Below are positions 1 through 57,584 of a stretch of DNA of 64,000 nucleotides, piece by piece. The notes beneath the pieces were generated by a model. The model made no database searches. It was not told where the DNA came from and worked only from the letters and a program-made list of their open reading frames with translations. The stretch's first letter is position 1. Each line of letters starts with the position of its first letter. A program made the translations under genes and the position numbers. The stretch is from Lewinellaceae bacterium (GTDB lineage Bacteria; Bacteroidota; Bacteroidia; Chitinophagales; Saprospiraceae), in contig CANJPT010000004.1 of the NCBI GenBank assembly GCA_947476195.1, positions 1-64,000 on the forward strand. Reading direction: 5' to 3'.

Positions 1-1295
1 CCTGTGGTCGGGTTGGGAAAAATTTGTATGGTTTCTTCCTTTGAAAGATTTGGGGTTGTTGTGCTGACCATTGGCGCGTTTATTCCAAGGGTATCGCAAG
101 TGCTGCCGGGTATATCGTAAAGGCGGTAATTTGGGTAGTTGGGGAGTGTACGAACAACGAAATTTGATAAATCAAAGCCTCTTTGTTGAAAGCCAATATT
201 TTGCTCATTCGGGGTGTTGATCACGTGATAAAACTTGCCCCTTCCTAAATTGCTAAGGTAAATCTTCCCGTCTGGGCCGTACTGCATTAGATGCAGACTG
301 GATCCGATAATATCAATTGAACCTACAATAGTGTCAAGATATGGTGTTGACTGGGTTAGGTCTGCCATTTGCACAGACAACTGGGTCGAGACCAGCAGAT
401 GGTTACCATCTTTGCTGAAAGCGACACCGCCGCCGCCAAAGGCATTGGGCGGCAATGGCAAAAACCGGTCATTTGAAAACTGCCCGGAACATCTATCAAA
501 ATCCATGGCCACCACTCCACAATGCTGTTGGCGGGCATATCGAATCCCATTGGGTGAAAATGCCGACGAGCCTATATACCGGCAGGATAGCGATTGCCCA
601 ATCAGTTGTACAGATTCTTCTTGCAGCCCTAATGCTGAGAATAAGAGCTTATGATACTTGTTTGTCCCATACTCCGGGAAAATCAACCACCAATCACGCC
701 CATTCCCATGTCGAACAGCAACAAAAGGCTCAAAGTTGCCATCGGCCACCACGTTGTTTTTTGAAATCACTTCGCCCTTACCTCCATCCAGGCTCATATC
801 AATGACGGTGTAATAAAATGGCCCATAATTCAACTTTCTTTCTAAGCCATATTTTACACCCATATGGAACAAATAGTACTGGCTTGGATGGTCTGGAAAT
901 GGAAGAATCATCGCACCCATTGGGGCGGCGTAGCCACTTGTAGGGCAGGTCCAATCGTTCATTTCTCCGGGATTTATGCCTGCGCCGTTTTGCATGGTGT
1001 CTCCAAGCGCATTGGCGATGTGGCACCCGTTGGTGTAGAAAAGGATATTGCCCATTGTATCAGGCATTACGGCCATCGTGCTTTCAAAGTTCATGTTCAA
1101 ATTCGTTTGAACAGTTGACACCTGGCCATTTTCGAACTTCAAATATGAATTGCCGTACCCGGGTTGACCAATAAAATCATTGATTCCATGTAGCCAGGTT
1201 TGATCTGGCAACACTTGTGCGAACAAGAAGCCCGGTAAAAAAAGTAGGGCAAGTACCTGACGCAAAGCTGTTCTTTTTTGTAGTGTTTGAATCAT
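1..1295 (-). CDS. Secreted FDFDRCSG-family protein with T9SS sorting domain (partial, 3' end outside window)
   Basis: The frame is open from the ATG at 1295 to the left edge, about 431 codons with no stop. A signal peptide is visible at the N-terminus (MIQTLQKRTALRQ, then a hydrophobic core ending FLFAQ). The middle contains HGNGRDWWLI, AMDFDRCSGQFS and NYPNYRLYDIPGSTCDTLGI, signatures shared with the neighbour at 1300-2751 and with the broken gene at 52596-54319. The last visible residues, IQIFPNPTTG, are the start of a type A T9SS C-terminal sorting domain, so secretion across the outer membrane is expected. The repeated short beta-like segments suggest a beta-propeller, which is inference. 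It starts 4 bp after the stop of the upstream paralogue and is probably in the same operon. The molecular function is unknown. Confidence 0.85.
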   Translation of the reverse strand, partial: MIQTLQKRTALRQVLALLFLPGFLFAQVLPDQTWLHGINDFIGQPGYGNSYLKFENGQVSTVQTNLNMNFESTMAVMPDTMGNILFYTNGCHIANALGDTMQNGAGINPGEMNDWTCPTSGYAAPMGAMILPFPDHPSQYYLFHMGVKYGLERKLNYGPFYYTVIDMSLDGGKGEVISKNNVVADGNFEPFVAVRHGNGRDWWLIFPEYGTNKYHKLLFSALGLQEESVQLIGQSLSCRYIGSSAFSPNGIRYARQQHCGVVAMDFDRCSGQFSNDRFLPLPPNAFGGGGVAFSKDGNHLLVSTQLSVQMADLTQSTPYLDTIVGSIDIIGSSLHLMQYGPDGKIYLSNLGRGKFYHVINTPNEQNIGFQQRGFDLSNFVVRTLPNYPNYRLYDIPGSTCDTLGINAPMVSTTTPNLSKEETIQIFPNPTT

Positions 1296-1299
1296 GATG

Positions 1300-2751
1300 C
1301 TAATCGTGTTTAGGTTCTGGTTGTGAAGAAGGCGTTAGCGTGGGTTGTCGCCTTCTTTCCTGTTCTTTTAGCATCAATATTTTCATATTCAAAGGGTTGT
1401 AGTCTGGTGGGTAGGGCTGCCCATCCGAAGCAGGGATATAAAAACCTGGCGGTAGTTTCAGCACTTTTATTTCTTCTGGTGATTCTATTCTTTGACCTCC
1501 AGGCCAAGCCACGTCCTTAAAGCCATTACCTGGTGGTGAGGTGAATCCAAGCGTATCGCAGGGCGAACCCGTCCACTTGCCGAGGCGATAATTTGGGAAA
1601 TAACACCGTGTAAGATCGTTATGGCGTGGTAGAATAAGTCCCCGTTGTGCCATGTCGTTAGCCAATAAAGGCAGATTCGGCCGATTGATGACATGAAATG
1701 CCTTTGAATAATTGAAAGTCGTGTAATAAATTTTATCGTCGGGAGCCAACTCAGGTAAAAGGAAATGAGTGTAATATGGCGGGGCCGGGCTTGCCCCATA
1801 CTCGTACCGACCGATGGTATCGAATGTAATATATGTGCTGTCAATTGTTTGCAAATCCAATTGATAGACGACCAAGTGTGTTCCTGCATAGAAAAAACTC
1901 CCATCAGGTGAAAACGCATTGGTCGCCGTCCAAAACACTGGAGGCTGATATGGCAACACGCGAGGATGGCTTAATAGTCCACTACAACGATCAAAATCAA
2001 AAATCCAAAGCCCAGTACTGTCGTCATTGCTAACGAAAATGCTACCATCTGGGGAGGCTTTTGCTAAACCATAATGTGTAAGCGATTGGGGAGCAATACT
2101 TTGCTGTTGTAACATATGTATACCTCCTGGGTCGATTAGAAACGTGAAGTATTTTTGTGAAATCCTATCTCCGGCAATCAACCACCAATCACGTCCATTA
2201 CCATGCTTAATAATGACTGGGCTATAAATATCTCCTTCAGCCAAGATATTATTTTTTGATATTACTTTGCCAAGTCCTCCATTTTGGTTCATGTCTATCA
2301 AACTATAATATAGAATGGGGTAAGGAACTGAAAAATCATAGCTACTGGATGTATGGATAAGGTAGTAATGATTTTTCAGCCCTGGGGCAGGAACAGATAA
2401 GCCGCTTCCAAGACTTGGATAATCATTAGGATAGTCACTCCAAATAGGCCCTGGGTTTATAGTATCCCCACCTTCCATAATATTGTGAAGGTGGTTTCGG
2501 ATTTGCCTGCCATTTGTGTGAAAAAGCAGATTGCCTGTGGAATCGCTGCAAATGATACAATATAGCCCAAAATCATGCTTTACATTTTCTAAGGTGAACT
2601 CTGGATAGCCATGCTCAAAGTGAAGCAATGTGCCGTTATTATTGCTTGGCGAATCGTAGTTGAACCCAAAAATCCAGTTGTTGTCGTGCATTTGGGCGGA
2701 GGCAAGGGGCAGGAAAGCACAAAATAGCAAGAGTGTGTAGAGTTTGCGCAT
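1300..2751 (-). CDS. Secreted FDFDRCSG-family protein without sorting domain
   Basis: This 483-residue protein starts with a clear signal peptide (MRKLYTLLLFCAFLPLASA, cleavage before QMHDN). I chose the ATG at 2751; a TTG two codons upstream would only lengthen the N-terminus. It carries the family signatures HGNGRDWWLIAGD, IFDFDRCSGLLS and YFPNYRLGKWTGSPCDTLGF in the same order as its paralogues at 1-1295 and 52596-54319. Unlike them it has no FPNP-type T9SS domain after the CDTLG motif. Instead it ends in about 80 residues rich in Pro, Lys, Arg and Glu. It may therefore stay periplasmic or be exported in another way; this is inference. It lies between the beta-helix gene upstream and the partial paralogue 4 bp downstream. 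No enzymatic motif was recognised. Confidence 0.85.
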   Translation of the reverse strand: MRKLYTLLLFCAFLPLASAQMHDNNWIFGFNYDSPSNNNGTLLHFEHGYPEFTLENVKHDFGLYCIICSDSTGNLLFHTNGRQIRNHLHNIMEGGDTINPGPIWSDYPNDYPSLGSGLSVPAPGLKNHYYLIHTSSSYDFSVPYPILYYSLIDMNQNGGLGKVISKNNILAEGDIYSPVIIKHGNGRDWWLIAGDRISQKYFTFLIDPGGIHMLQQQSIAPQSLTHYGLAKASPDGSIFVSNDDSTGLWIFDFDRCSGLLSHPRVLPYQPPVFWTATNAFSPDGSFFYAGTHLVVYQLDLQTIDSTYITFDTIGRYEYGASPAPPYYTHFLLPELAPDDKIYYTTFNYSKAFHVINRPNLPLLANDMAQRGLILPRHNDLTRCYFPNYRLGKWTGSPCDTLGFTSPPGNGFKDVAWPGGQRIESPEEIKVLKLPPGFYIPASDGQPYPPDYNPLNMKILMLKEQERRRQPTLTPSSQPEPKHD

Positions 2752-2767
2752 CAGCAAAATATGAAAT

Positions 2768-2802
2768 CCCTATGCTGCTGGCAACGCGCCAGCAGCATAG
2801 GG
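2768..2802 (-). terminator. Hairpin between beta-helix gene and downstream paralogue
   Basis: A perfect 15 bp inverted repeat (CCCTATGCTGCTGGC and its complement) with a 5 nt loop sits between the stop of the 2819-5668 gene and the start at 2751. There is no long T-run on the minus strand, so it may be an intercistronic mRNA-stabilising or partial attenuating hairpin and not a full terminator. The equivalent spot in the second module (54330-54356) also holds a hairpin. Confidence 0.6.
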
Positions 2803-2818
2803 GTAGTAAGAAAAGTAG

Positions 2819-5668
2819 TTAATGGTTGAAAACAATCTTGCTGCGAGTCAAGACATGGCCTTGTTCCAGCACTTCGAGGAGATACACTCCTGCGGAGACA
2901 TTGGCTTCTCGAACATTCAGAACATCACCTGAGAATTTCCAATTGCCAAGTATTCGCCCTTGCAAATCTACCAAATGTACTGTGGCATTTTGGAGGCTGC
3001 GGTCAAGCTGTAGACTAAAAGCCTGTTCTGCTGGATTAGGGAAAACGGTGGCATTCACAAGATGGGGAGATTCTTGATCGCTGCGATCGCCACTTTCTCC
3101 TCTTCCAAGGTTCGAAGGGCAATCACCTACTCTTTGACTAGATTGGCCTAATGCCAATCGCGCCATTACTACTCCGCTACCTCCTTCATATCGGCACTGA
3201 TCAGCAATATATGTCAGGTCCAAAATTTGTTGAGGGGTAAGTGGTGATCCACCCCCGCTTATTTGCAATTCCAAGAAAATTCGCAAAACAGTCTTCAGGT
3301 TTTGCTCGTAGGTGGTATTTACGACAGTGGCGTTTAGATCAGAATACAATTGCGTAGTGGTAGCTGTGGGCGCATCTGAAGTTAGCGAGACAAACCCATC
3401 GAAAACCCGATGAAGTTTTCCTAAATTACTAGGATAGTTACTCGCATACCAAGTAGCCTCTATGCTACCTTGAGGCCTTAAACTGGCATCTTCAGTCATC
3501 CGTTGGTAGAGCAAAAATGCTGCGTCCCAAGTATTGGCAGCATAGCCTTTCCAGGGCGTGAAAGTGCCATCCACGATGCCTTTTTCCCCATAGTCCAGTT
3601 TGGGGTCATCACCGTTTAGTGTTTCCGCAGGACACAAATTTACTGTAGGGGGTGTTGGTGTTATAGGTGCGACAAACCAGTTGGGATCATTACCGCCACC
3701 GCTAGAAACCCCAACTATTCTTGGGTTAGCCCAATAACCACTATTTTGATTAGATGTTTGAATGATGAATTGGGACTTTTTGACTTTATCCGCATCAAAT
3801 ATAGGATTGTAGTTCGGAAAGTACATAAAGGCCTCAGTATCTCCAGGATTACCACCCCAAGTGTTGTACTTCTTGAACTGACCGCCAATGACGGTGCCTT
3901 CGACATTTAGGTAAAGCCCTTTTGAGAAGTGGTTATTAAAGCTGTTTTGGTATAGGCTGGAAGCACCACACATGCCGCTAAAGTTCATCCCGATCCCCAT
4001 CCCGCTCAAGTAGTTGCAATTGTAAATACAGTTGGGAGACTCGTTAATGATAAAGCTTTGGTCTGGCTGACCTTCACTGTTTATTCCAATTATATCATTG
4101 TTAGCCCAGCGAAACCCATTGCAACCTTGCATTTTTATAGCTTCTGCCAGCCCCTCATCCCATTCATCATAAAACTCGTTGTTCTCACCAACCCCTTTGA
4201 ACAAGTTTGTGATTTCAAATCCAATCATGACGAGAGTAGGGTTGAAAGAACTGCGATCTCTAAAATAGAGTTTATTATTGTTTATCTTAACTGTCTCGCC
4301 TGAAGCGGCGGCTTCGGATGAGACCCTAACAGCCGTTCTAACGCCTAACAAGTGTATATCATCATCAAAAACACAGTTTTGTACTTCAAATGCACTTAAA
4401 TTAATTGCATTGGCCGCCTCTCTTTTTGCAATAATCCCGTTTCGTAAAAATCCTTTAAATCTACAATTTGTTGCTTTTACATATCTTGGAGAGTTTCCTA
4501 AGTTTTGTATGTGAACAATGCACTCATTAACAGTGCTAAACTTTGCATTGGATACATCGGTGCTTGAGTTTGAAAGGTACACCCCTGATTTGCAAGAAAG
4601 AAAAGTGCTGGTAGAGTTTTCTCCAGCCCCTAAACCCTGAACGGCAACCGTACTACCTTGAACCGCTCCTGTTGCACCATCGTCTTGCTGCGTAGAATTA
4701 AAGGCAATAAACTCAAATCGTGAATTGCGGACAGTAACATCTGAGTTACTGATTGAGATACCCCGGCAATCCACAGCATAAGGAGGGAAATTCTCAAACG
4801 AAGTAAAAAGGTTTTGACCTCCGGCCCAGCTACCAATATTGATATTGTCGACCCCGGCAATTAACATGCCATTTGTTGGTCTGCTACCAACAAATGGAGC
4901 CTTGAGCCCCTCTAAGCCGCTAAAAGTATTACCCCATATACCGCCTCCAGGGCTGAAACTAAGCGGTTCTTGTACATTATAGTTTGTAGAGCCTAAGTAC
5001 ACCGCCAGTAAATTTCTGTCAAAGAAGTTGTTAGTAATGGATATTTTCGAGTTTTTAAGTGCTTCGATGCTAGTATAGCCATCACGTATCTGGCACTGAT
5101 TTTCCACTATAAGCGTTGCCCCTGGCTGGGCAGATATTCGTTTCCACATGTCAGAACATCCATGTACGGACGTTTTATTCAGCTTCAAGCTATTGCCATT
5201 GGTAATCACGATTTCGCTTAATTGATCTGCGAAAACAATCTCTGAATCTGTGAAGAAAGTATAGCCGCCTGACGAAGTACTGATATCAACAATTAAGGTA
5301 CCCTTTATCACGATACGTTGAGCCGTGTTTGCAGCTTGTGCTTGTGGTAACAGAAGGGTTGAAATATTGGGGTCTGGGTCGTTGAGCAAAGCTGAGATGC
5401 TTATTGGCCCAGTGATACACTTGTAGGTGGTTGGCTCAGAAGGATGGTCAAGACAGGCTGTCGTGACATTATGGCAAGGGAGCTGCGCATTGCTTTGGGT
5501 GGGGAGAAGAAATGCGATGAAGAGCATTGCAAATGCACTGAGCGCATTAGGAATCCTGGCTTGCCATAAAAATTGAACTTGGGAGGCTCTGCTGCTCCCC
5601 GCAAACAAGGTCGGAGATTTTGGACAATTTGTGTTTTGAGGTCTTAGAAAATTGAGTACTTTTTTCAT
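2819..5668 (-). CDS. Secreted right-handed beta-helix protein with T9SS sorting domain
   Basis: This 949-residue protein has an unusually long N-terminal leader: the hydrophobic segment AFAMLFIAFLLP ends near residue 57, before SNAQLPC. Residues about 110-600 contain many repeated short strands with Asn/Gly/Ser turns (for example ISITNNFFDRN, ISISNSDVTVRNSRF), typical of parallel beta-helix (pectate-lyase-like) surface proteins. After a Pro-rich linker near residue 660 comes an alpha-rich segment. The last about 75 residues (VNATVFPNPAEQAFSLQ to KIVFNH) are a type A T9SS sorting domain. It heads a minus-strand set with the two FDFDRCSG-family genes downstream. A second beta-helix protein at 54375-57584 has the same architecture and the same neighbour type. 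No catalytic residues were recognised; adhesion or polysaccharide binding is only a guess. Confidence 0.85.
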   Translation of the reverse strand: MKKVLNFLRPQNTNCPKSPTLFAGSSRASQVQFLWQARIPNALSAFAMLFIAFLLPTQSNAQLPCHNVTTACLDHPSEPTTYKCITGPISISALLNDPDPNISTLLLPQAQAANTAQRIVIKGTLIVDISTSSGGYTFFTDSEIVFADQLSEIVITNGNSLKLNKTSVHGCSDMWKRISAQPGATLIVENQCQIRDGYTSIEALKNSKISITNNFFDRNLLAVYLGSTNYNVQEPLSFSPGGGIWGNTFSGLEGLKAPFVGSRPTNGMLIAGVDNINIGSWAGGQNLFTSFENFPPYAVDCRGISISNSDVTVRNSRFEFIAFNSTQQDDGATGAVQGSTVAVQGLGAGENSTSTFLSCKSGVYLSNSSTDVSNAKFSTVNECIVHIQNLGNSPRYVKATNCRFKGFLRNGIIAKREAANAINLSAFEVQNCVFDDDIHLLGVRTAVRVSSEAAASGETVKINNNKLYFRDRSSFNPTLVMIGFEITNLFKGVGENNEFYDEWDEGLAEAIKMQGCNGFRWANNDIIGINSEGQPDQSFIINESPNCIYNCNYLSGMGIGMNFSGMCGASSLYQNSFNNHFSKGLYLNVEGTVIGGQFKKYNTWGGNPGDTEAFMYFPNYNPIFDADKVKKSQFIIQTSNQNSGYWANPRIVGVSSGGGNDPNWFVAPITPTPPTVNLCPAETLNGDDPKLDYGEKGIVDGTFTPWKGYAANTWDAAFLLYQRMTEDASLRPQGSIEATWYASNYPSNLGKLHRVFDGFVSLTSDAPTATTTQLYSDLNATVVNTTYEQNLKTVLRIFLELQISGGGSPLTPQQILDLTYIADQCRYEGGSGVVMARLALGQSSQRVGDCPSNLGRGESGDRSDQESPHLVNATVFPNPAEQAFSLQLDRSLQNATVHLVDLQGRILGNWKFSGDVLNVREANVSAGVYLLEVLEQGHVLTRSKIVFNH

Positions 5669-52548: not shown

Positions 52549-52598
52549 TGATGGACACGTTTACGAAACCTGCTAGGTTTTCGTAAACGTGTCCATCA
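52549..52598. terminator. Bidirectional terminator between recQ and the broken secreted gene
   Basis: A stem of 23 bp with one bulge (TGATGGACACGTTTACGAAA and complement) and a GCT loop separates the convergent genes. The right arm contains the stop codon of the minus-strand gene. Confidence 0.75.
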
Positions 52599-54319
52599 AT
52601 TCCCCGCAACGCAGAGCATAGAAACCGCCAATCTCCTCCCTTCATCCGACAACACGGCCCAGTAAATGCCCGTGGCAATTCCTTCCAACGAAATAGTGCT
52701 TTCCTCTGACTTCAAGGGTGCTGCGTAAACCGTCTGCCCCAACACATTGATGAGAGAAAATCGGGCGGACGGCCTTGCGCCAGGATATTGAACGCTCACC
52801 GCTTCAAAGGCCGGATTTGGGTAAAGCAACATAGCCTGTCCTTCAGATTCCGGCTCCCCGGTAGCTATCGTTTTAATTTCAATATCCCGGCACATCGTAT
52901 CACAGCCATTGGTATTGCACACCGTCATGCAGACATGGTAGATGCCCGGCAGGGCAAACTGGTGTACGGGCTGGTGTCTGCGCTGGTTTGCCCGTCGCCA
53001 AAATCCCAGTGCCAGGTTTCGGGCTCGTAGGAAGAGTTGTCCGTAAAAACGATTTATAAAGCAGTGGTATCCTTGTCCCAACGCCACCAGGCCAGCGGGT
53101 GGTTGAGCAAGCCCAAAGAATCGCAGCCGCTGCCTTCCAGCGGGCCAAGGCGGTAGTTGGGAAAGTGGGGCATGGTGGCAAAATTCTCATTGGGGAAATA
53201 TACACCGCCCAATACCACTTCGCAGGCCTTGCCCTTTCGGTTGGGATACCGGATATAGTGGCCGTAATGCGTCCATGAAAAAGGCATAATGTATATCTTG
53301 CCGTCCATCATCAGATTCATAGTGGCAAATTTCGGATAAGGCCCCTGCCAAAGAACTACCGTATCGGCGGAAGTCTCAATGTCAGATGCCTGGAGGTCGT
53401 ATTGCACAACCCAGGAGGAGGAAGAAACATATAAAAACCGGGAGTTGGGTGATACGGCCGCCCCAGCCCCAAAAGACCAATGCTGTGGGAATTCTATAAG
53501 TACTGGGTTGGACAGCAGGCCGCTGCAACGGTCAAAATCAAAGATTCGGATGCCATTCCATGCGTCGAAGTCAATATACTTGCTACTATCTGGTGTAAAT
53601 ACATTTTGGCCACCACCGTCACGGTACTGAAACCAGGGAGGCTGGTACCCAATATGCTGGGTGTCTATTTGGGTAAAACCATTTGGGCCAAGCAGAGCGC
53701 GATAATAGGCATTTAAGGTATCATCTTGAGCCATGACCCACCAGTCGCGGCCGTTGGCGTGATGACAGGACGTAATCTCTTGTAGCAAAACTCCATTCCA
53801 CAATATGTTATTTTTTTTTGTAACCTTCCCTTTGCCATTATTGAATTTCACATCAATAATAGAATATAGTATTTTAGGGATTTTAGCACCAAAAACTGGA
53901 GCATATTCTTCTTCTGAATGAATCAGGTAAAAAACGGAATCTTCTTTTCCACATGGTAAACCAATCATTCCAAAAGCAACTGGATAGCCTTCAGCATACC
54001 ACTCCTTAGCTACTATTCCCCAACTTAAACTATCTCCATTTTCCAATTGTTCATGCTGGCTGTTCAAAACCTGAATACCATTAGAGTAGACCAACAATTC
54101 TCCTTTCTGATTGGATAAGGTAAGTGAAGAAACATATATCCCCATTTTCCCTTCAAACAATGATAAGTCGTATGGATATTCATTAAAATCAATCCGATTA
54201 CTGGGGGTAACAGGAGTACCTTCATACCCAGCACCGCTAATCCAGTTAGCATCATGATATTGACACTGAGCAAATAAAGGGCTAAGACAAGAAAATAAAA
54301 GCAATAAACATTTGATCAT
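52596..54319 (-). pseudogene. FDFDRCSG-family secreted protein with PKD and T9SS domains, broken by a stop and a frameshift
   Basis: From the ATG at 54319 a signal peptide (MIKCLLLLFSCLSPLFAQ) leads into the family signatures HANGRDWWVMAQDD, IFDFDRCSGLLS and HFPNYRLGPLEGSGCDSLGL. The frame then meets a TAA at 53054-53056. The same frame continues past it as IVFTDNSSYEPETWHWDFGDGQT, a PKD domain, until about 52968. There one base is missing, and the next frame continues with VHQFALPGIYHVCMTVCN and a T9SS domain (LYPNPAFEAVSVQYPG to MLCVAGN). Two changes thus separate it from an intact protein of about 574 residues. It is preceded by a beta-helix gene, as in the module at 1-5668. Confidence 0.88.
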
Positions 54320-54329
54320 ATGCAAAAAG

Positions 54330-54356
54330 CTGGGCTTTGCGAATAGCAAAGCCCAG
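54330..54356 (-). terminator. Hairpin between beta-helix gene and broken gene
   Basis: An 11 bp perfect stem (CTGGGCTTTGC / GCAAAGCCCAG) with a 5 nt loop lies between the stop of the 54375-57584 gene and the start at 54319. Its position equals that of the hairpin at 2768-2802 in the first module. It has no strong T-run. Confidence 0.55.
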
Positions 54357-54374
54357 TGGAATTCAGAAGTGAAA

Positions 54375-57300
54375 TTATCGTGTGAAGATTACTTTGCGAG
54401 TGGCTATCACCCTATCTCCGTTTAGGATTTGAGTAAAGTAAATTCCCGGCGCATAGCCTTTTAAGTCAATTGTTTCGGTATTTTGGGTCAATGGGACATC
54501 TAACCTAATTTTGCCTAAGACATCTACCAACCTGAAATGGGTATTGACATCAAGGTACTCACAACTAACTGTAAGATAATCGCTTGCAGGGTTCGGGCTA
54601 AGCTTAAATCCATAGTCTTGTGCGTTCGACTTGTTGTCAGACCGTTCGTGTACAGGCATACAATCGGCTTTTGGCACAATAGAATCCGTCAGCCAGGCAT
54701 AATAACTGCGGGCATCGTATACGGCCCAACCTGCGGATTCCGGGCAAGAGGCCGCGATGGAATACAGTTGATTCAACTCCGTGGTACTTGCTGTTGCTTG
54801 TGGAATAATCCGTTCCAACAAGATATGGTTGACAAATTTTTGGTTTAATTCCCATGGGTTGCTACTGGAGATGGCATTGTTTTGATTTACAATGGAAGCT
54901 AATGTGCTCGAAAAGTTTTGTTCAACCGGGAGTGCGGCCAGGCTAAAATCATTTTGAAGCACATCAAAGGCTTGGATATTTGTGTTCCGCAGGCTGATCC
55001 ATTGCTGGCGAGTAGTTTCGCTCAACGTGCTGTCTATTAAGATCGAATCAACGGCGGCGACTAATACGATACGGGCATGGATCAAGGCTGCAATAGAATC
55101 CAATCCATGTTGTTGACTCGTCGGAGTTTGGTATAATCCCCGGATAGATTTCTCTACCTGGTACAATTGCCCTATAGGCTGGTTGTCCCTGGCACTCACG
55201 AAGGATAGTATCTGTGACTCGCCTGTAGCGATGCCGGGGTTGTCTTTTACCTTGCGGTACAAGTAATAATCGTGCAACCACATATAACCTGAGGAGGTGT
55301 AAGCTTCCAGGCCAGTCTGTCCCGAAGCAATTTTGCGGTCGAGCAAACCAATATAAGGAGCTGTACAGGAGGTAGTTAGGTGTTCCGGGCAGACATAATC
55401 GTCCCAGTAAGCTTGGGCGTCTTGTTGGAACCACACACTTGGGTCAACACCCTGATCCATTTGATATTCAAACGGATTTTGACTGCTCCCGTAATTACCC
55501 GTTGGAGCAGTTGGAACTTTGTAGGGAGAAAGCAAGACGGTATTTAACCCTCCCTTATGCCTTGCTCCAATATACCCACCTACAGGCTCCCAATCATGGC
55601 CAAACCATTCGTTTCCTACACTTTTTATAGGGCTACCCTGGATGTATTGAATGCCAGTAATGCCATCCGGCTCATACACCAATCCAAAGTCATTGTGTGT
55701 CCAGGCGGTGAAGCGCACATTGCTTTCAGTGTTACAAATGCCCGAGAAACGAAGGCCATCAGAGGTGAACGAGGAGACGTTGTCGAACAGCAGGTTGGAG
55801 GGACTGTTGTCGAAAAGATAGTAGACAGATTGGTCATCTTCCCAACCGTTAACATTGTTACAGTCAATCAAATTAATGCTGCCTCCTAAAACGAGCACAC
55901 CTTCTATGTTTTTGCTGGAGCCGTAAGGACTACTCGAACTAAAGTTGTTATTAAAAACCCGGGAGTTTTTTGAGTTATCAAGATATACATCCTGAAGTTT
56001 TAAGGTAGAAACCTGAAATTGCCCTGGATAAAATTCGTTTTCCCTTATTTCAATGGAGTTATTGGGGTATGGCATTGAAGCCAGATTATTCAAATAAATC
56101 CCTTTACAGGTATAATTCGTGTTGCTTCCTGTATAAAAAGTTCCGGTCTGTATCTTCAAGGAATTTGGGCTGACCCCGGCTTGTATCCCATAAATACCAA
56201 AATTTTTGCAAAAGGTCTCGCCCGCAGTAATGTGTGAGTAATCAAATGGAGAAAGCGGATATCTTTTCAAGCCTTGAGAAAGTCTCAGCTGGTAAGCGGC
56301 CTTTGAAAAATTGGAACCGGCTATCCTGCTGTCAAAAAATGAAAGGCTGGCAGCGTTAGTCAAATCAATGCTGCTGTTGTCGCAGGTAGCAAAGGAGTTG
56401 GCTTTGTCCAGATTTCTGAACGTGGCAAGTCCGGAATTTGAGATTTTTATTCCGTTTCCGGTGTATTTATTAAGGTTTATATCGGAGCGCATCGCTGTAA
56501 AACTACAATTATTGATATTGGAATTGCAGTTTTTCATCCATATTCCATTGGCCAGGTATATGAATGTATTTTTTGTAAAAATGTTCAGCGTGGAGCCTTC
56601 CAGAAATATCCCTGCAAATGGCCGAACGGTCGAGTATGCAAGGCCAAAAATCTCATCCGTTATATAATTATCCAGTGACAAGGCCGGAAAATTTGGTGGC
56701 ATCGGGAAGAAACTGTTTTGCGGTCCTTTAAAGGTATTTCCTGAAATTCCGTTATTTATAAATTGCCCGTTAGCGGCCAGGCTCAAAAAGTTGTTTTCAA
56801 ATGTAGAACCGTTTAATGTTACCGCTGCTTCGGGGTGCCTAATCCTTACTGCAATAAGGGCACCTTTGATATGCGAATCTCCTGTTATCTGAAGATCTCC
56901 GGATCGCTCAACATCAATCCCTTGCCAGATTGGGCTGTTGTTCGTTTGGCTTATAAAAGCATTGTGTACTTTAGAATTATTTTTAATACTTAAACGATTT
57001 TTAGGTGAAGATGAAACGTTGTCTCCTACAATAAACCCGGTGCCTGGGTCCATACAAACATTGCAGTTATTGAAGGCTTGACTCAGCTTGTCAATTTGAA
57101 TTCTGCTTAACACAAAGAGATTCTTTTGCTGTACTAAATCAGCAAGTAATGGTTGCCCGTCATTACATCTGGTAAGGGTAGAAACTGGCAATACTAAACT
57201 GAAGTCACCCGCAATGCCAACAAAGATTCCTTGTGTTGTTAAGGTGTAAGGCAAGACAGCGTTATAGCTGTCGCCGCTGCAAATTATATTATGATGAACA

Positions 57301-57584
57301 GATATTACCGGATCCTGATAGGCGTCTATGTTGGATAAATAGAAAGAAACCGTAGTGCCGGTTAGTGTTTGGTTGGCCCCACACTGTCCAATATTCCAGG
57401 TATGTGTACAGTCCAAGCAGCCAATTGCGGTAAAGGTTACTTTCAATTTGCAATCTTCTAACTGTTCAGTAGTGGTAAAACTACCATTACAGGGGGCTGG
57501 TTCTCCTTGTGCAACCAGAAAACTGCTTGCGTAAAACAGGCCCAAAGAAGTAAGCCAGCATAAAATTTTACATTTGAAGTTCAC
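54375..57584 (-). CDS. Secreted right-handed beta-helix protein with T9SS sorting domain (second copy)
   Basis: 1069 residues. The signal peptide (CKILCWLTSLGLFYASSFLVAQ) is followed by a beta-sandwich segment rich in Cys (EDCKLKVTFTAIGCLDCTH). A beta-helix region from about residue 190 to 690 carries repeats such as SIKNNSKVHNAFIS and IWMKNCNSNINNCSF. The C-terminal helical region contains LNQLYSIAASCPESAGWAVYDARSYY, which resembles a segment in the 2819-5668 protein (DLTYIADQCRYEGGSGVVMAR). A T9SS domain (FKLSPNPASDYLTVSCEYL to KVIFTR) ends the protein. It is the first gene of the second module; a promoter candidate is at 57637-57668. Function unknown. Confidence 0.85.
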   Translation of the reverse strand: MNFKCKILCWLTSLGLFYASSFLVAQGEPAPCNGSFTTTEQLEDCKLKVTFTAIGCLDCTHTWNIGQCGANQTLTGTTVSFYLSNIDAYQDPVISVHHNIICSGDSYNAVLPYTLTTQGIFVGIAGDFSLVLPVSTLTRCNDGQPLLADLVQQKNLFVLSRIQIDKLSQAFNNCNVCMDPGTGFIVGDNVSSSPKNRLSIKNNSKVHNAFISQTNNSPIWQGIDVERSGDLQITGDSHIKGALIAVRIRHPEAAVTLNGSTFENNFLSLAANGQFINNGISGNTFKGPQNSFFPMPPNFPALSLDNYITDEIFGLAYSTVRPFAGIFLEGSTLNIFTKNTFIYLANGIWMKNCNSNINNCSFTAMRSDINLNKYTGNGIKISNSGLATFRNLDKANSFATCDNSSIDLTNAASLSFFDSRIAGSNFSKAAYQLRLSQGLKRYPLSPFDYSHITAGETFCKNFGIYGIQAGVSPNSLKIQTGTFYTGSNTNYTCKGIYLNNLASMPYPNNSIEIRENEFYPGQFQVSTLKLQDVYLDNSKNSRVFNNNFSSSSPYGSSKNIEGVLVLGGSINLIDCNNVNGWEDDQSVYYLFDNSPSNLLFDNVSSFTSDGLRFSGICNTESNVRFTAWTHNDFGLVYEPDGITGIQYIQGSPIKSVGNEWFGHDWEPVGGYIGARHKGGLNTVLLSPYKVPTAPTGNYGSSQNPFEYQMDQGVDPSVWFQQDAQAYWDDYVCPEHLTTSCTAPYIGLLDRKIASGQTGLEAYTSSGYMWLHDYYLYRKVKDNPGIATGESQILSFVSARDNQPIGQLYQVEKSIRGLYQTPTSQQHGLDSIAALIHARIVLVAAVDSILIDSTLSETTRQQWISLRNTNIQAFDVLQNDFSLAALPVEQNFSSTLASIVNQNNAISSSNPWELNQKFVNHILLERIIPQATASTTELNQLYSIAASCPESAGWAVYDARSYYAWLTDSIVPKADCMPVHERSDNKSNAQDYGFKLSPNPASDYLTVSCEYLDVNTHFRLVDVLGKIRLDVPLTQNTETIDLKGYAPGIYFTQILNGDRVIATRKVIFTR

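What the first reader, a model, noticed from the sequence alone, without database searches (positions are those of the whole stretch)
1..5668. Repeated two-gene surface module: beta-helix protein followed by FDFDRCSG-family protein
The arrangement beta-helix/T9SS gene, intergenic hairpin, then FDFDRCSG-family gene occurs at 1-5668 and again at 52596-57584, both on the minus strand. The two beta-helix proteins also share a C-terminal helical segment (IAxxC..GG/AG..V..AR). The three FDFDRCSG proteins share HxNGRDWW, FDFDRCSG and PNYRLG..GSxCD(T/S)LG in the same order. Conserved gene pairing in two places implies that the products work together at the cell surface. I recognise no described system with this pair.
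Basis: partly seen in the sequence, partly recalled or inferred. Interest (0 to 1): 0.6.

Follow-up and report, generated by a model that had tools for sequence, protein, structure and literature searches.

The report
Paired surface-protein genes with conserved hairpin
These bacteria carry many copies of a small gene cluster that puts a long coil-shaped surface protein first and a propeller-shaped partner second, nearly always with an RNA hairpin between them, which suggests an undescribed two- or three-part surface recognition system.

Summary
The genome has 29 propeller ("FDFDRCSG") matches, some of them pieces of one gene. The helical segment shared by the two beta-helix (BH) proteins marks a family whose genes lie just upstream of a propeller gene in 13 of 13 own-genome cases, 41 of 42 in five relatives and 26 of 29 best matches from other genomes of the order. 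Modules co-diverge within genomes.

New: (1) the BH-propeller gap holds a strong hairpin in 76 of 87 modules, against 21-31% in five control classes. (2) There are two subtypes. Window 1-5668 is a three-gene form, BH, PropA and PropB; PropA lacks a T9SS tail; well-supported clades hold most or all of each part. Window 52596-57584 is a two-gene form whose propeller frame is broken before its PKD/T9SS tail.

Best reading: BH is the faster-diverging recognition part and the propeller its lower-dose partner. Pairing is shown; interaction, dose and ligand are inferred. Paper searches found no description.

The parts
2819..5668 (-). BH gene, first module: right-handed beta-helix (about residues 118-615), helical domain (693-839), T9SS type A tail (873-947)
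   Evidence: ORF; tail; structure (mean pLDDT 82.4); fold match (4ozy Z 21.6, rmsd 2.6, 284 aligned)
2768..2802 (-). Intergenic terminator-like hairpin, 15 pairs, 16 nt after the BH stop and 16 nt before the propeller Met
   Evidence: (-32.4 kcal/mol, z -8.1); controls
1300..2751 (-). PropA: hydrophobic N-terminus, propeller (about residues 20-385), charged hydrophilic tail, no T9SS tail; member of the tail-less clade (Met at 2751; ORF listed from 2757)
1..1295 (-). PropB: propeller followed by what looks like the start of a T9SS tail (ends FPNPTT), cut by the contig start at base 1; too short to be recognised by a tail profile
   Evidence: clade with tailed relatives
54375..57584 (-). BH gene, second module: beta-helix-type protein with helical domain and T9SS tail
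   Evidence: its own structure was not predicted
54330..54356 (-). Intergenic terminator-like hairpin, 11 pairs, 18 nt after the BH stop and 10 nt before the propeller Met, followed by a T run
53054..54319 (-). Propeller of the second module, ended by an in-frame TAA before its tail (Met at 54319; ORF listed from 54349)
52596..53087 (-). PKD-like and T9SS-tail part of the same propeller gene, in another frame (broken gene or assembly error)

Best explanation
It is an amplified surface-protein operon of Saprospiraceae and other families of the same order. The first gene makes a right-handed beta-helix protein (BH) with a C-terminal helical domain and a T9SS tail. The second makes a propeller partner. 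In one old subtype two propellers follow, PropA without a T9SS tail and PropB with one. After Sec export, tailed members cross the outer membrane through the T9SS and stay at the surface or are released. BH, the faster-diverging protein, recognises a ligand, probably a polysaccharide or another surface. The better conserved propeller binds BH, most plausibly through the helical domain that marks these BH proteins, and acts as an adaptor or anchor. The hairpin between the genes lets only part of the transcription or translation reach the propeller, so that BH exceeds propeller. The richer genomes keep a dozen or more diverged copies as a recognition repertoire. Shown: gene order, domains, tails, hairpin conservation, co-divergence, amplification. 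Inferred: joint transcription, binding, dose, ligand, role in attachment.
For: Order and adjacency: 13 of 13 (in L072 a 93-residue ORF lies between, and in L061 the BH gene is split), 41 of 42 (the exception ends at a contig end), 26 of 29. From the propeller side, 68 of 90 non-edge propellers have a BH upstream. Hairpin in 76 of 87 modules against 8 of 26, 23 of 110, 27 of 110, 24 of 81 and 21 of 70 in controls; the same criteria gave 79 of 88 against 7 of 26 between propellers, and 36 of 36 in the own genome and five relatives against 43 of 51 in loci chosen by their propeller. Narrow spacing to the start codon (median 15 nt, IQR 12-17, 69 of 88 modules measured). Co-divergence within genomes r 0.86 against 0.50 permuted, 0 of 2000. 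BH tail most like its own propeller's tail in 17 of 35, expected 7.0, 1 of 5000 permutations. Tails: BH 27 of 28, propellers 52 of 70. Propeller better conserved than BH core in 21 of 24 module pairs chosen on helical-domain similarity alone (means 0.65 and 0.53). Predicted folds.
Against: No interaction, localisation or expression data exist here. The helical domain is little better conserved than the BH core (0.58 against 0.53; 0.38 each), so it is not marked out as a conserved interface. In L221 and L222 a BH with the helical domain is followed by a different T9SS protein, and L205 has no partner. 22 of 90 non-edge propellers lack a detected BH. Only 36 of 69 hairpins have a T-rich tail, so termination is uncertain. 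In related modules two-sided pair changes exceed a slid control (54 of 567 against 93 of 2283), but broken pairs are nearly as common as in the control (164 of 567 against 756 of 2283), since many gaps align poorly. The rank correlation is modest (0.38), so close copies carry part of the signal. A promoter-motif scan upstream of BH was uninformative. Several copies are broken, partly perhaps through assembly.
Confidence: 0.45

Rival explanations
1. The genes stay together only because the operon duplicates and spreads as one block; the two proteins act independently at the surface.
For: Modules are amplified and co-diverge; propellers without a detected BH exist, as does at least one BH without a propeller (L205).
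Against: Order is kept in 26 of 29 best matches across the order, while BH genes without a propeller next are rare (1 of 42 in five genomes, at a contig end); own-module tail similarity; the hairpin is kept between just these two genes.
Confidence: 0.25
2. It is a polysaccharide-processing pair: BH is a lyase, epimerase or hydrolase of the beta-helix class and the propeller a lactonase-like or carbohydrate-binding helper.
For: The BH model aligns best with alginate epimerases, polysaccharide lyases and tailspikes (4ozy Z 21.6, rmsd 2.6, 284 aligned). The PropA model aligns best with 6-phosphogluconolactonase-like propellers (4qrj Z 21.3, rmsd 3.8, 302 aligned).
Against: A shared fold shows no function, and the same list holds the adhesins PfbA and pertactin. 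No polysaccharide lyase or glycosidase family was matched by any of 28 BH proteins in Pfam at E 0.01 (one had a weak peptidase M43 match, 0.0058). Catalytic residues were not looked for.
Confidence: 0.15
3. The array is a recombination store for surface variation: extra propellers and BH remnants (helical domain plus tail only) are donor cassettes.
For: Short internal ORFs with only helical domain and tail between propellers (L100, L114, L117); 22-residue N-termini equal but for one position in two modules; contig C4 starts and C181 ends on the same tail, a shared repeat; tails similar within modules.
Against: No population data; no invertase or recombination site was searched for; remnants may be simple decay.
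Confidence: 0.12
4. The hairpin is an ordinary terminator that splits two separately transcribed genes.
For: Terminator-like in both window loci; a T-rich tail in 36 of 69.
Against: The gaps are mostly under 90 nt and leave little room for a promoter; the stem ends a median 15 nt before the start codon; other gene ends in the same loci carry such stems in only 21-31%.
Confidence: 0.15

Closest known systems
T9SS type A cargo proteins in general (Por_Secre_tail, PF18962 / TIGR04183)
   Same: BH (27 of 28) and most propellers (52 of 70) carry this tail
   Different: Fixed two- or three-gene module with a hairpin; PropA has no such tail (18 of 18 in its clade, at least one cut by a locus edge)
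PorZ of Porphyromonas gingivalis (PMC5121618; passages read)
   Same: Surface-exposed propeller protein with a T9SS tail and a proposed glycan-binding role
   Different: PorZ has two propellers and is a secretion component; here one propeller, many copies, and a BH partner
Gliding adhesins SprB and RemA (PMC10202324; passages read)
   Same: T9SS-exported surface adhesins of Bacteroidota; sprB lies in an operon with helper genes (title seen in its reference list)
   Different: The word propeller does not occur in the held main text of that review; no sequence comparison was run here
Surface beta-helix adhesins PfbA and pertactin, and tailspikes
   Same: Same fold class
   Different: Fold only; no sequence relation shown; other export routes (recalled)
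Archaeal surface-layer protein with YVTN propeller and PKD domain (1l0q)
   Same: Propeller fold (Z 20.3, rmsd 3.6, 278 aligned) and propeller-plus-PKD surface architecture; PKD in 24 of 70 propeller proteins here
   Different: No T9SS tail and no BH partner (recalled)
CS6 fimbrial operon of enterotoxigenic E. coli (PMC8923064; passages read)
   Same: Intergenic hairpin in a surface-structure operon, reported there to matter for expression
   Different: Unrelated proteins; as I read the passages, the hairpin lies between cssB and cssC

Membership tests
T9SS type A cargo | C-terminal sorting domain in BH and tailed propellers | tested here: met
   BH of both window modules; 27 of 28 BH; 52 of 70 propellers; second window propeller has it in another frame; PropB is cut at base 1 and could not be judged
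T9SS type A cargo | C-terminal sorting domain in PropA (1300-2757) | tested here: not met
   no match at E 1; all 18 members of its clade without it, at least one of them cut by a locus edge
T9SS type A cargo | N-terminal Sec signal peptide | tested here: inconclusive
   hydrophobic N-termini are read in the sequence; no signal-peptide program was run
Right-handed beta-helix proteins | beta-helix fold | tested here: met
   model of 2819-5668; matches; Pfam Beta_helix in 10 of 28 BH proteins, not in the window proteins at E 1
Lactonase/WD40-like beta-propellers | propeller fold | tested here: met
   model of PropA; Z 21.3 to 4qrj; profile matches; blades were not counted
6-phosphogluconolactonase | enzymatic activity | not testable with these tools
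   fold likeness only
PorZ | two tandem propellers plus T9SS tail | tested here: not met
   PropA model of 483 residues: matches span residues 20-385, one propeller, and no tail
Gliding adhesin SprB/RemA | sequence relation | not tested
   no comparison was run

The most novel reading that the evidence does not exclude
The three-gene form is a surface complex in which PropA, having no T9SS tail, crosses the outer membrane as a passenger bound to tailed PropB or BH. This would be hitchhiker export through the type IX system, with the intergenic hairpin setting the subunit ratio and dozens of diverged modules forming a combinatorial recognition repertoire.
Probability: 0.15. Interest if true: 0.8.

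Novelty: new variant of a known kind. Interest (0 to 1): 0.57.

Why it matters
Bacteroidota genomes encode many T9SS-exported proteins of unknown role. This work turns dozens of anonymous genes in the richer genomes into one testable unit with a fixed architecture, a shared RNA element, two subtypes and a clear partner prediction. If the pair binds, it names a receptor or adhesin system of environmental Saprospiraceae. If PropA reaches the surface without a tail, it asks a direct question about what the type IX system can carry.

Tried and rejected
Tried without result: Pfam and NCBIfam name no function; their matches were tail-related, PKD, beta-helix/NosD, propeller repeats and a few single weak ones. 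PDB sequence searches with BH and with the helical profile gave nothing below E 0.29, and the helical domain was not searched as a fold of its own. A Bacteroidota promoter motif (recalled) was not enriched upstream of BH (3 of 51 BH, 1 of 88 first propellers, 4 of 63 solo propellers, 28 of 538 other genes). None of 20 loci around solo propellers in four relatives held a helical-domain match; in five of them I read long upstream genes and judged them by eye to be other proteins (L080, L082, L083, L090, L094). Paper searches for this pair found no description, judged from their listings (for cargo without a tail). Aureispira ixotrophy was a lead from memory; only the search listing was seen and nothing there connects it to this module.

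Limits: the 80 named loci were chosen because they hold a propeller, so the count of 54 of 54 BH followed by a propeller is biased and is not used as evidence. 52 of the 88 modules behind searches come from those loci, 23 from the relatives and 13 from the own genome. The 63 module pairs were chosen on propeller similarity, which favours the propeller; one search repeats the comparison on pairs chosen by helical similarity. The phylum search (own genome only, 1 of 395) scored at most seven candidates per genome and is insensitive. Of 42 other genomes of the order with a match I examined the best match of 29. L113 and L195 are the same place and both count (L195 left out). Hairpin control classes over 110 genes were sampled at random to 110. 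Trees are FastTree trees rooted at the midpoint; 13 of 15 tail-less first propellers and 13 of 16 second propellers fall in the quoted clades.

Dropped rows: one search keeps 69 of 88 modules (stem below -15 kcal/mol and a readable start); one search keeps 75 distinct modules of 88; one search keeps 35 modules from seven genomes with at least three; one search uses 40 related module pairs, with 403 pairs kept, 164 broken and 166 unaligned.
Full report
WHAT IS THERE. On the minus strand the window holds two loci. Locus 1 (1-5668): a 949-residue beta-helix protein (BH), a hairpin, a propeller protein (PropA, 1300-2751), and 4 nt later a second propeller (PropB), cut at base 1. Base 1 is the start of contig C4 of the genome. 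Locus 2 (52596-57584): a 1069-residue BH, a hairpin, and one propeller whose frame is interrupted by TAA at 53054-53056 and a later change of frame before its PKD and T9SS tail. This is a decaying gene or an assembly error. The three propellers are relatives (34%, E 3e-60 and 3e-63). The BH pair share the helical segment and the tail (E 2e-6). That the genome is a Saprospiraceae bin is inferred: contigs of same-genus genomes have the lengths of named records, for example G018:C19 and G009:C3.

THE PAIRING IS NOT CHANCE. The propeller profile finds 29 matches in this genome, some of them pieces of one gene. The profile of the BH helical segment finds 14 matches in 13 genes, and all 13 lie just upstream of a propeller gene on the same strand (in L072 a 93-residue ORF lies between, and in L061 the BH gene is split). 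In five contiguous relatives, 48 pieces merge to 42 loci, of which 41 are followed within 318-667 nt by a propeller; the exception ends one base from a contig end. The 95 propeller places in about 30 million bases would by arithmetic give well under one such neighbour by chance. Across the order, 43 of 198 genomes, own included, hold the helical domain. Of the best matches of 29 other genomes, 26 have a propeller next; two have another T9SS-tailed protein and one has none. From the propeller side, 68 of 90 non-edge propellers in 80 named loci have a BH upstream. Many named relatives are Saprospiraceae bins; cultured Lewinella cohaerens carries a propeller but no detected BH at the place fetched.

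TWO SUBTYPES. Of 88 modules, 64 have one propeller (59 with a T9SS tail) and 24 have more. In 12 the order is BH, tail-less propeller, tailed propeller, and in one more two tail-less propellers precede a tailed one; the window's locus 1 and L059 belong with them but their last tails are cut by contig ends. Eight modules have two tailed propellers. A tree places 13 of the 15 tail-less first propellers with five other tail-less ones in one clade of 18 (support 0.99); at least one of these is cut by a locus edge. Their partners group too: 13 of 15 members of a second-propeller clade (0.99; 16 such propellers in all) and 12 of 14 members of a BH clade (0.998; 12 such BH in all). So locus 1 is an old three-gene form. 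PropA ends in a charged, mostly low-confidence tail.

THE HAIRPIN. Between BH and propeller a strong stem is present in 76 of 87 modules; controls: propeller to propeller 8 of 26, after the last propeller 24 of 81, other co-directional genes 27 of 110 and 21 of 70, convergent genes 23 of 110. In the own genome and five relatives it is 36 of 36, and in the propeller-chosen loci 43 of 51. It starts a median 14 nt after the stop and ends a median 15 nt before the start codon (69 of 88 modules). Sequences differ between modules. In related modules 54 of 567 aligned pairs changed on both sides and still pair, against 93 of 2283 when the partner is slid; broken pairs are almost as frequent as in that control (164 of 567 against 756 of 2283), so this test is only suggestive. 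The cleanest cases are window against L119 (four two-sided changes, none broken) and L114 against one L100 module (three two-sided, none broken). A T-rich tail follows in 36 of 69. I read the stem as a partial terminator or translation brake that lowers the propeller's dose; this is inference. The CS6 operon of E. coli is a precedent in which an intergenic hairpin matters for expression (PMC8923064, passages).

HISTORY. Within genomes, BH helical and propeller distances correlate at r 0.86 (rank correlation 0.38), against 0.50 when partners are shuffled, 0 of 2000. The T9SS tail of a BH is closest to that of its own propeller in 17 of 35 modules, expected 7.0 (permutation 1 of 5000, Wilcoxon p 0.04). 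In module pairs chosen on helical similarity alone the propeller is better conserved than the BH core in 21 of 24 (means 0.65 and 0.53; helical domain 0.58); one search showed the same but on pairs chosen by propeller similarity. Remnants with only helical domain and tail lie between propellers in three of the relatives' loci read.

STRUCTURE. The BH model (mean pLDDT 82.4) is a right-handed beta-helix, a helical domain and a tail. Its beta-helix aligns with alginate epimerase, tailspikes and the adhesins PfbA and pertactin. Solved T9SS tails such as 8glk_D and 8qb1 appear among its weaker Foldseek matches (E about 0.01-0.02). PropA is a propeller of the lactonase class (4qrj Z 21.3, rmsd 3.8, 302 aligned).

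HOW IT MOST LIKELY WORKS, AND WHAT IS KNOWN. See best explanation. Known T9SS surface proteins (SprB, RemA, PorZ) differ in architecture (passages of PMC10202324, and PMC5121618). Folded cargo passes the T9SS (passages of PMC9251779), so a bound passenger is conceivable, but nothing here shows it. Searches for the pair found no description; subscription papers and preprints are not covered.

Noticed in passing
window 1-40; L059 6150-6194: Contig C4 (the window) starts and contig C181 ends inside the same propeller tail (residues EETIQIFPNPTT), so the assembly broke at a sequence shared by two modules.
   Followed up: partly
window 52596-54319: Propeller gene with an in-frame TAA and then a frame change before its PKD/T9SS tail; other copies in this genome are also split (L060, L061, L062).
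   Followed up: partly
L100 7666-8349, L114 4583-5266, L117 9528-10016: Short ORFs holding only the BH helical domain and T9SS tail, with no beta-helix and no evident signal peptide, sit between propeller genes.
   Followed up: partly
L221 2079-3164 and L222 2124-3233: BH with helical domain followed by a different, non-propeller T9SS protein: a possible alternative partner in another family of the order.
   Followed up: partly
L097, L098 and places: The propeller profile also matches larger proteins (up to 2208 residues), several with endings like type B T9SS tails (recalled), so the propeller belongs to a wider superfamily.
   Followed up: no
window 5603-5668 and L059 177-242: Two modules on different contigs share a 22-residue N-terminus equal but for one position (MKKxLNFLRPQNTNCPKSPTLF) before diverged proteins, which hints at exchange of leader sequences.
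   Followed up: no
L112, L114, L116 (G009): Repeated short ORFs (VDKKKAQSLPDI..., LFHADECGVCLL...) beside modules look by eye like insertion elements in this relative.
   Followed up: no
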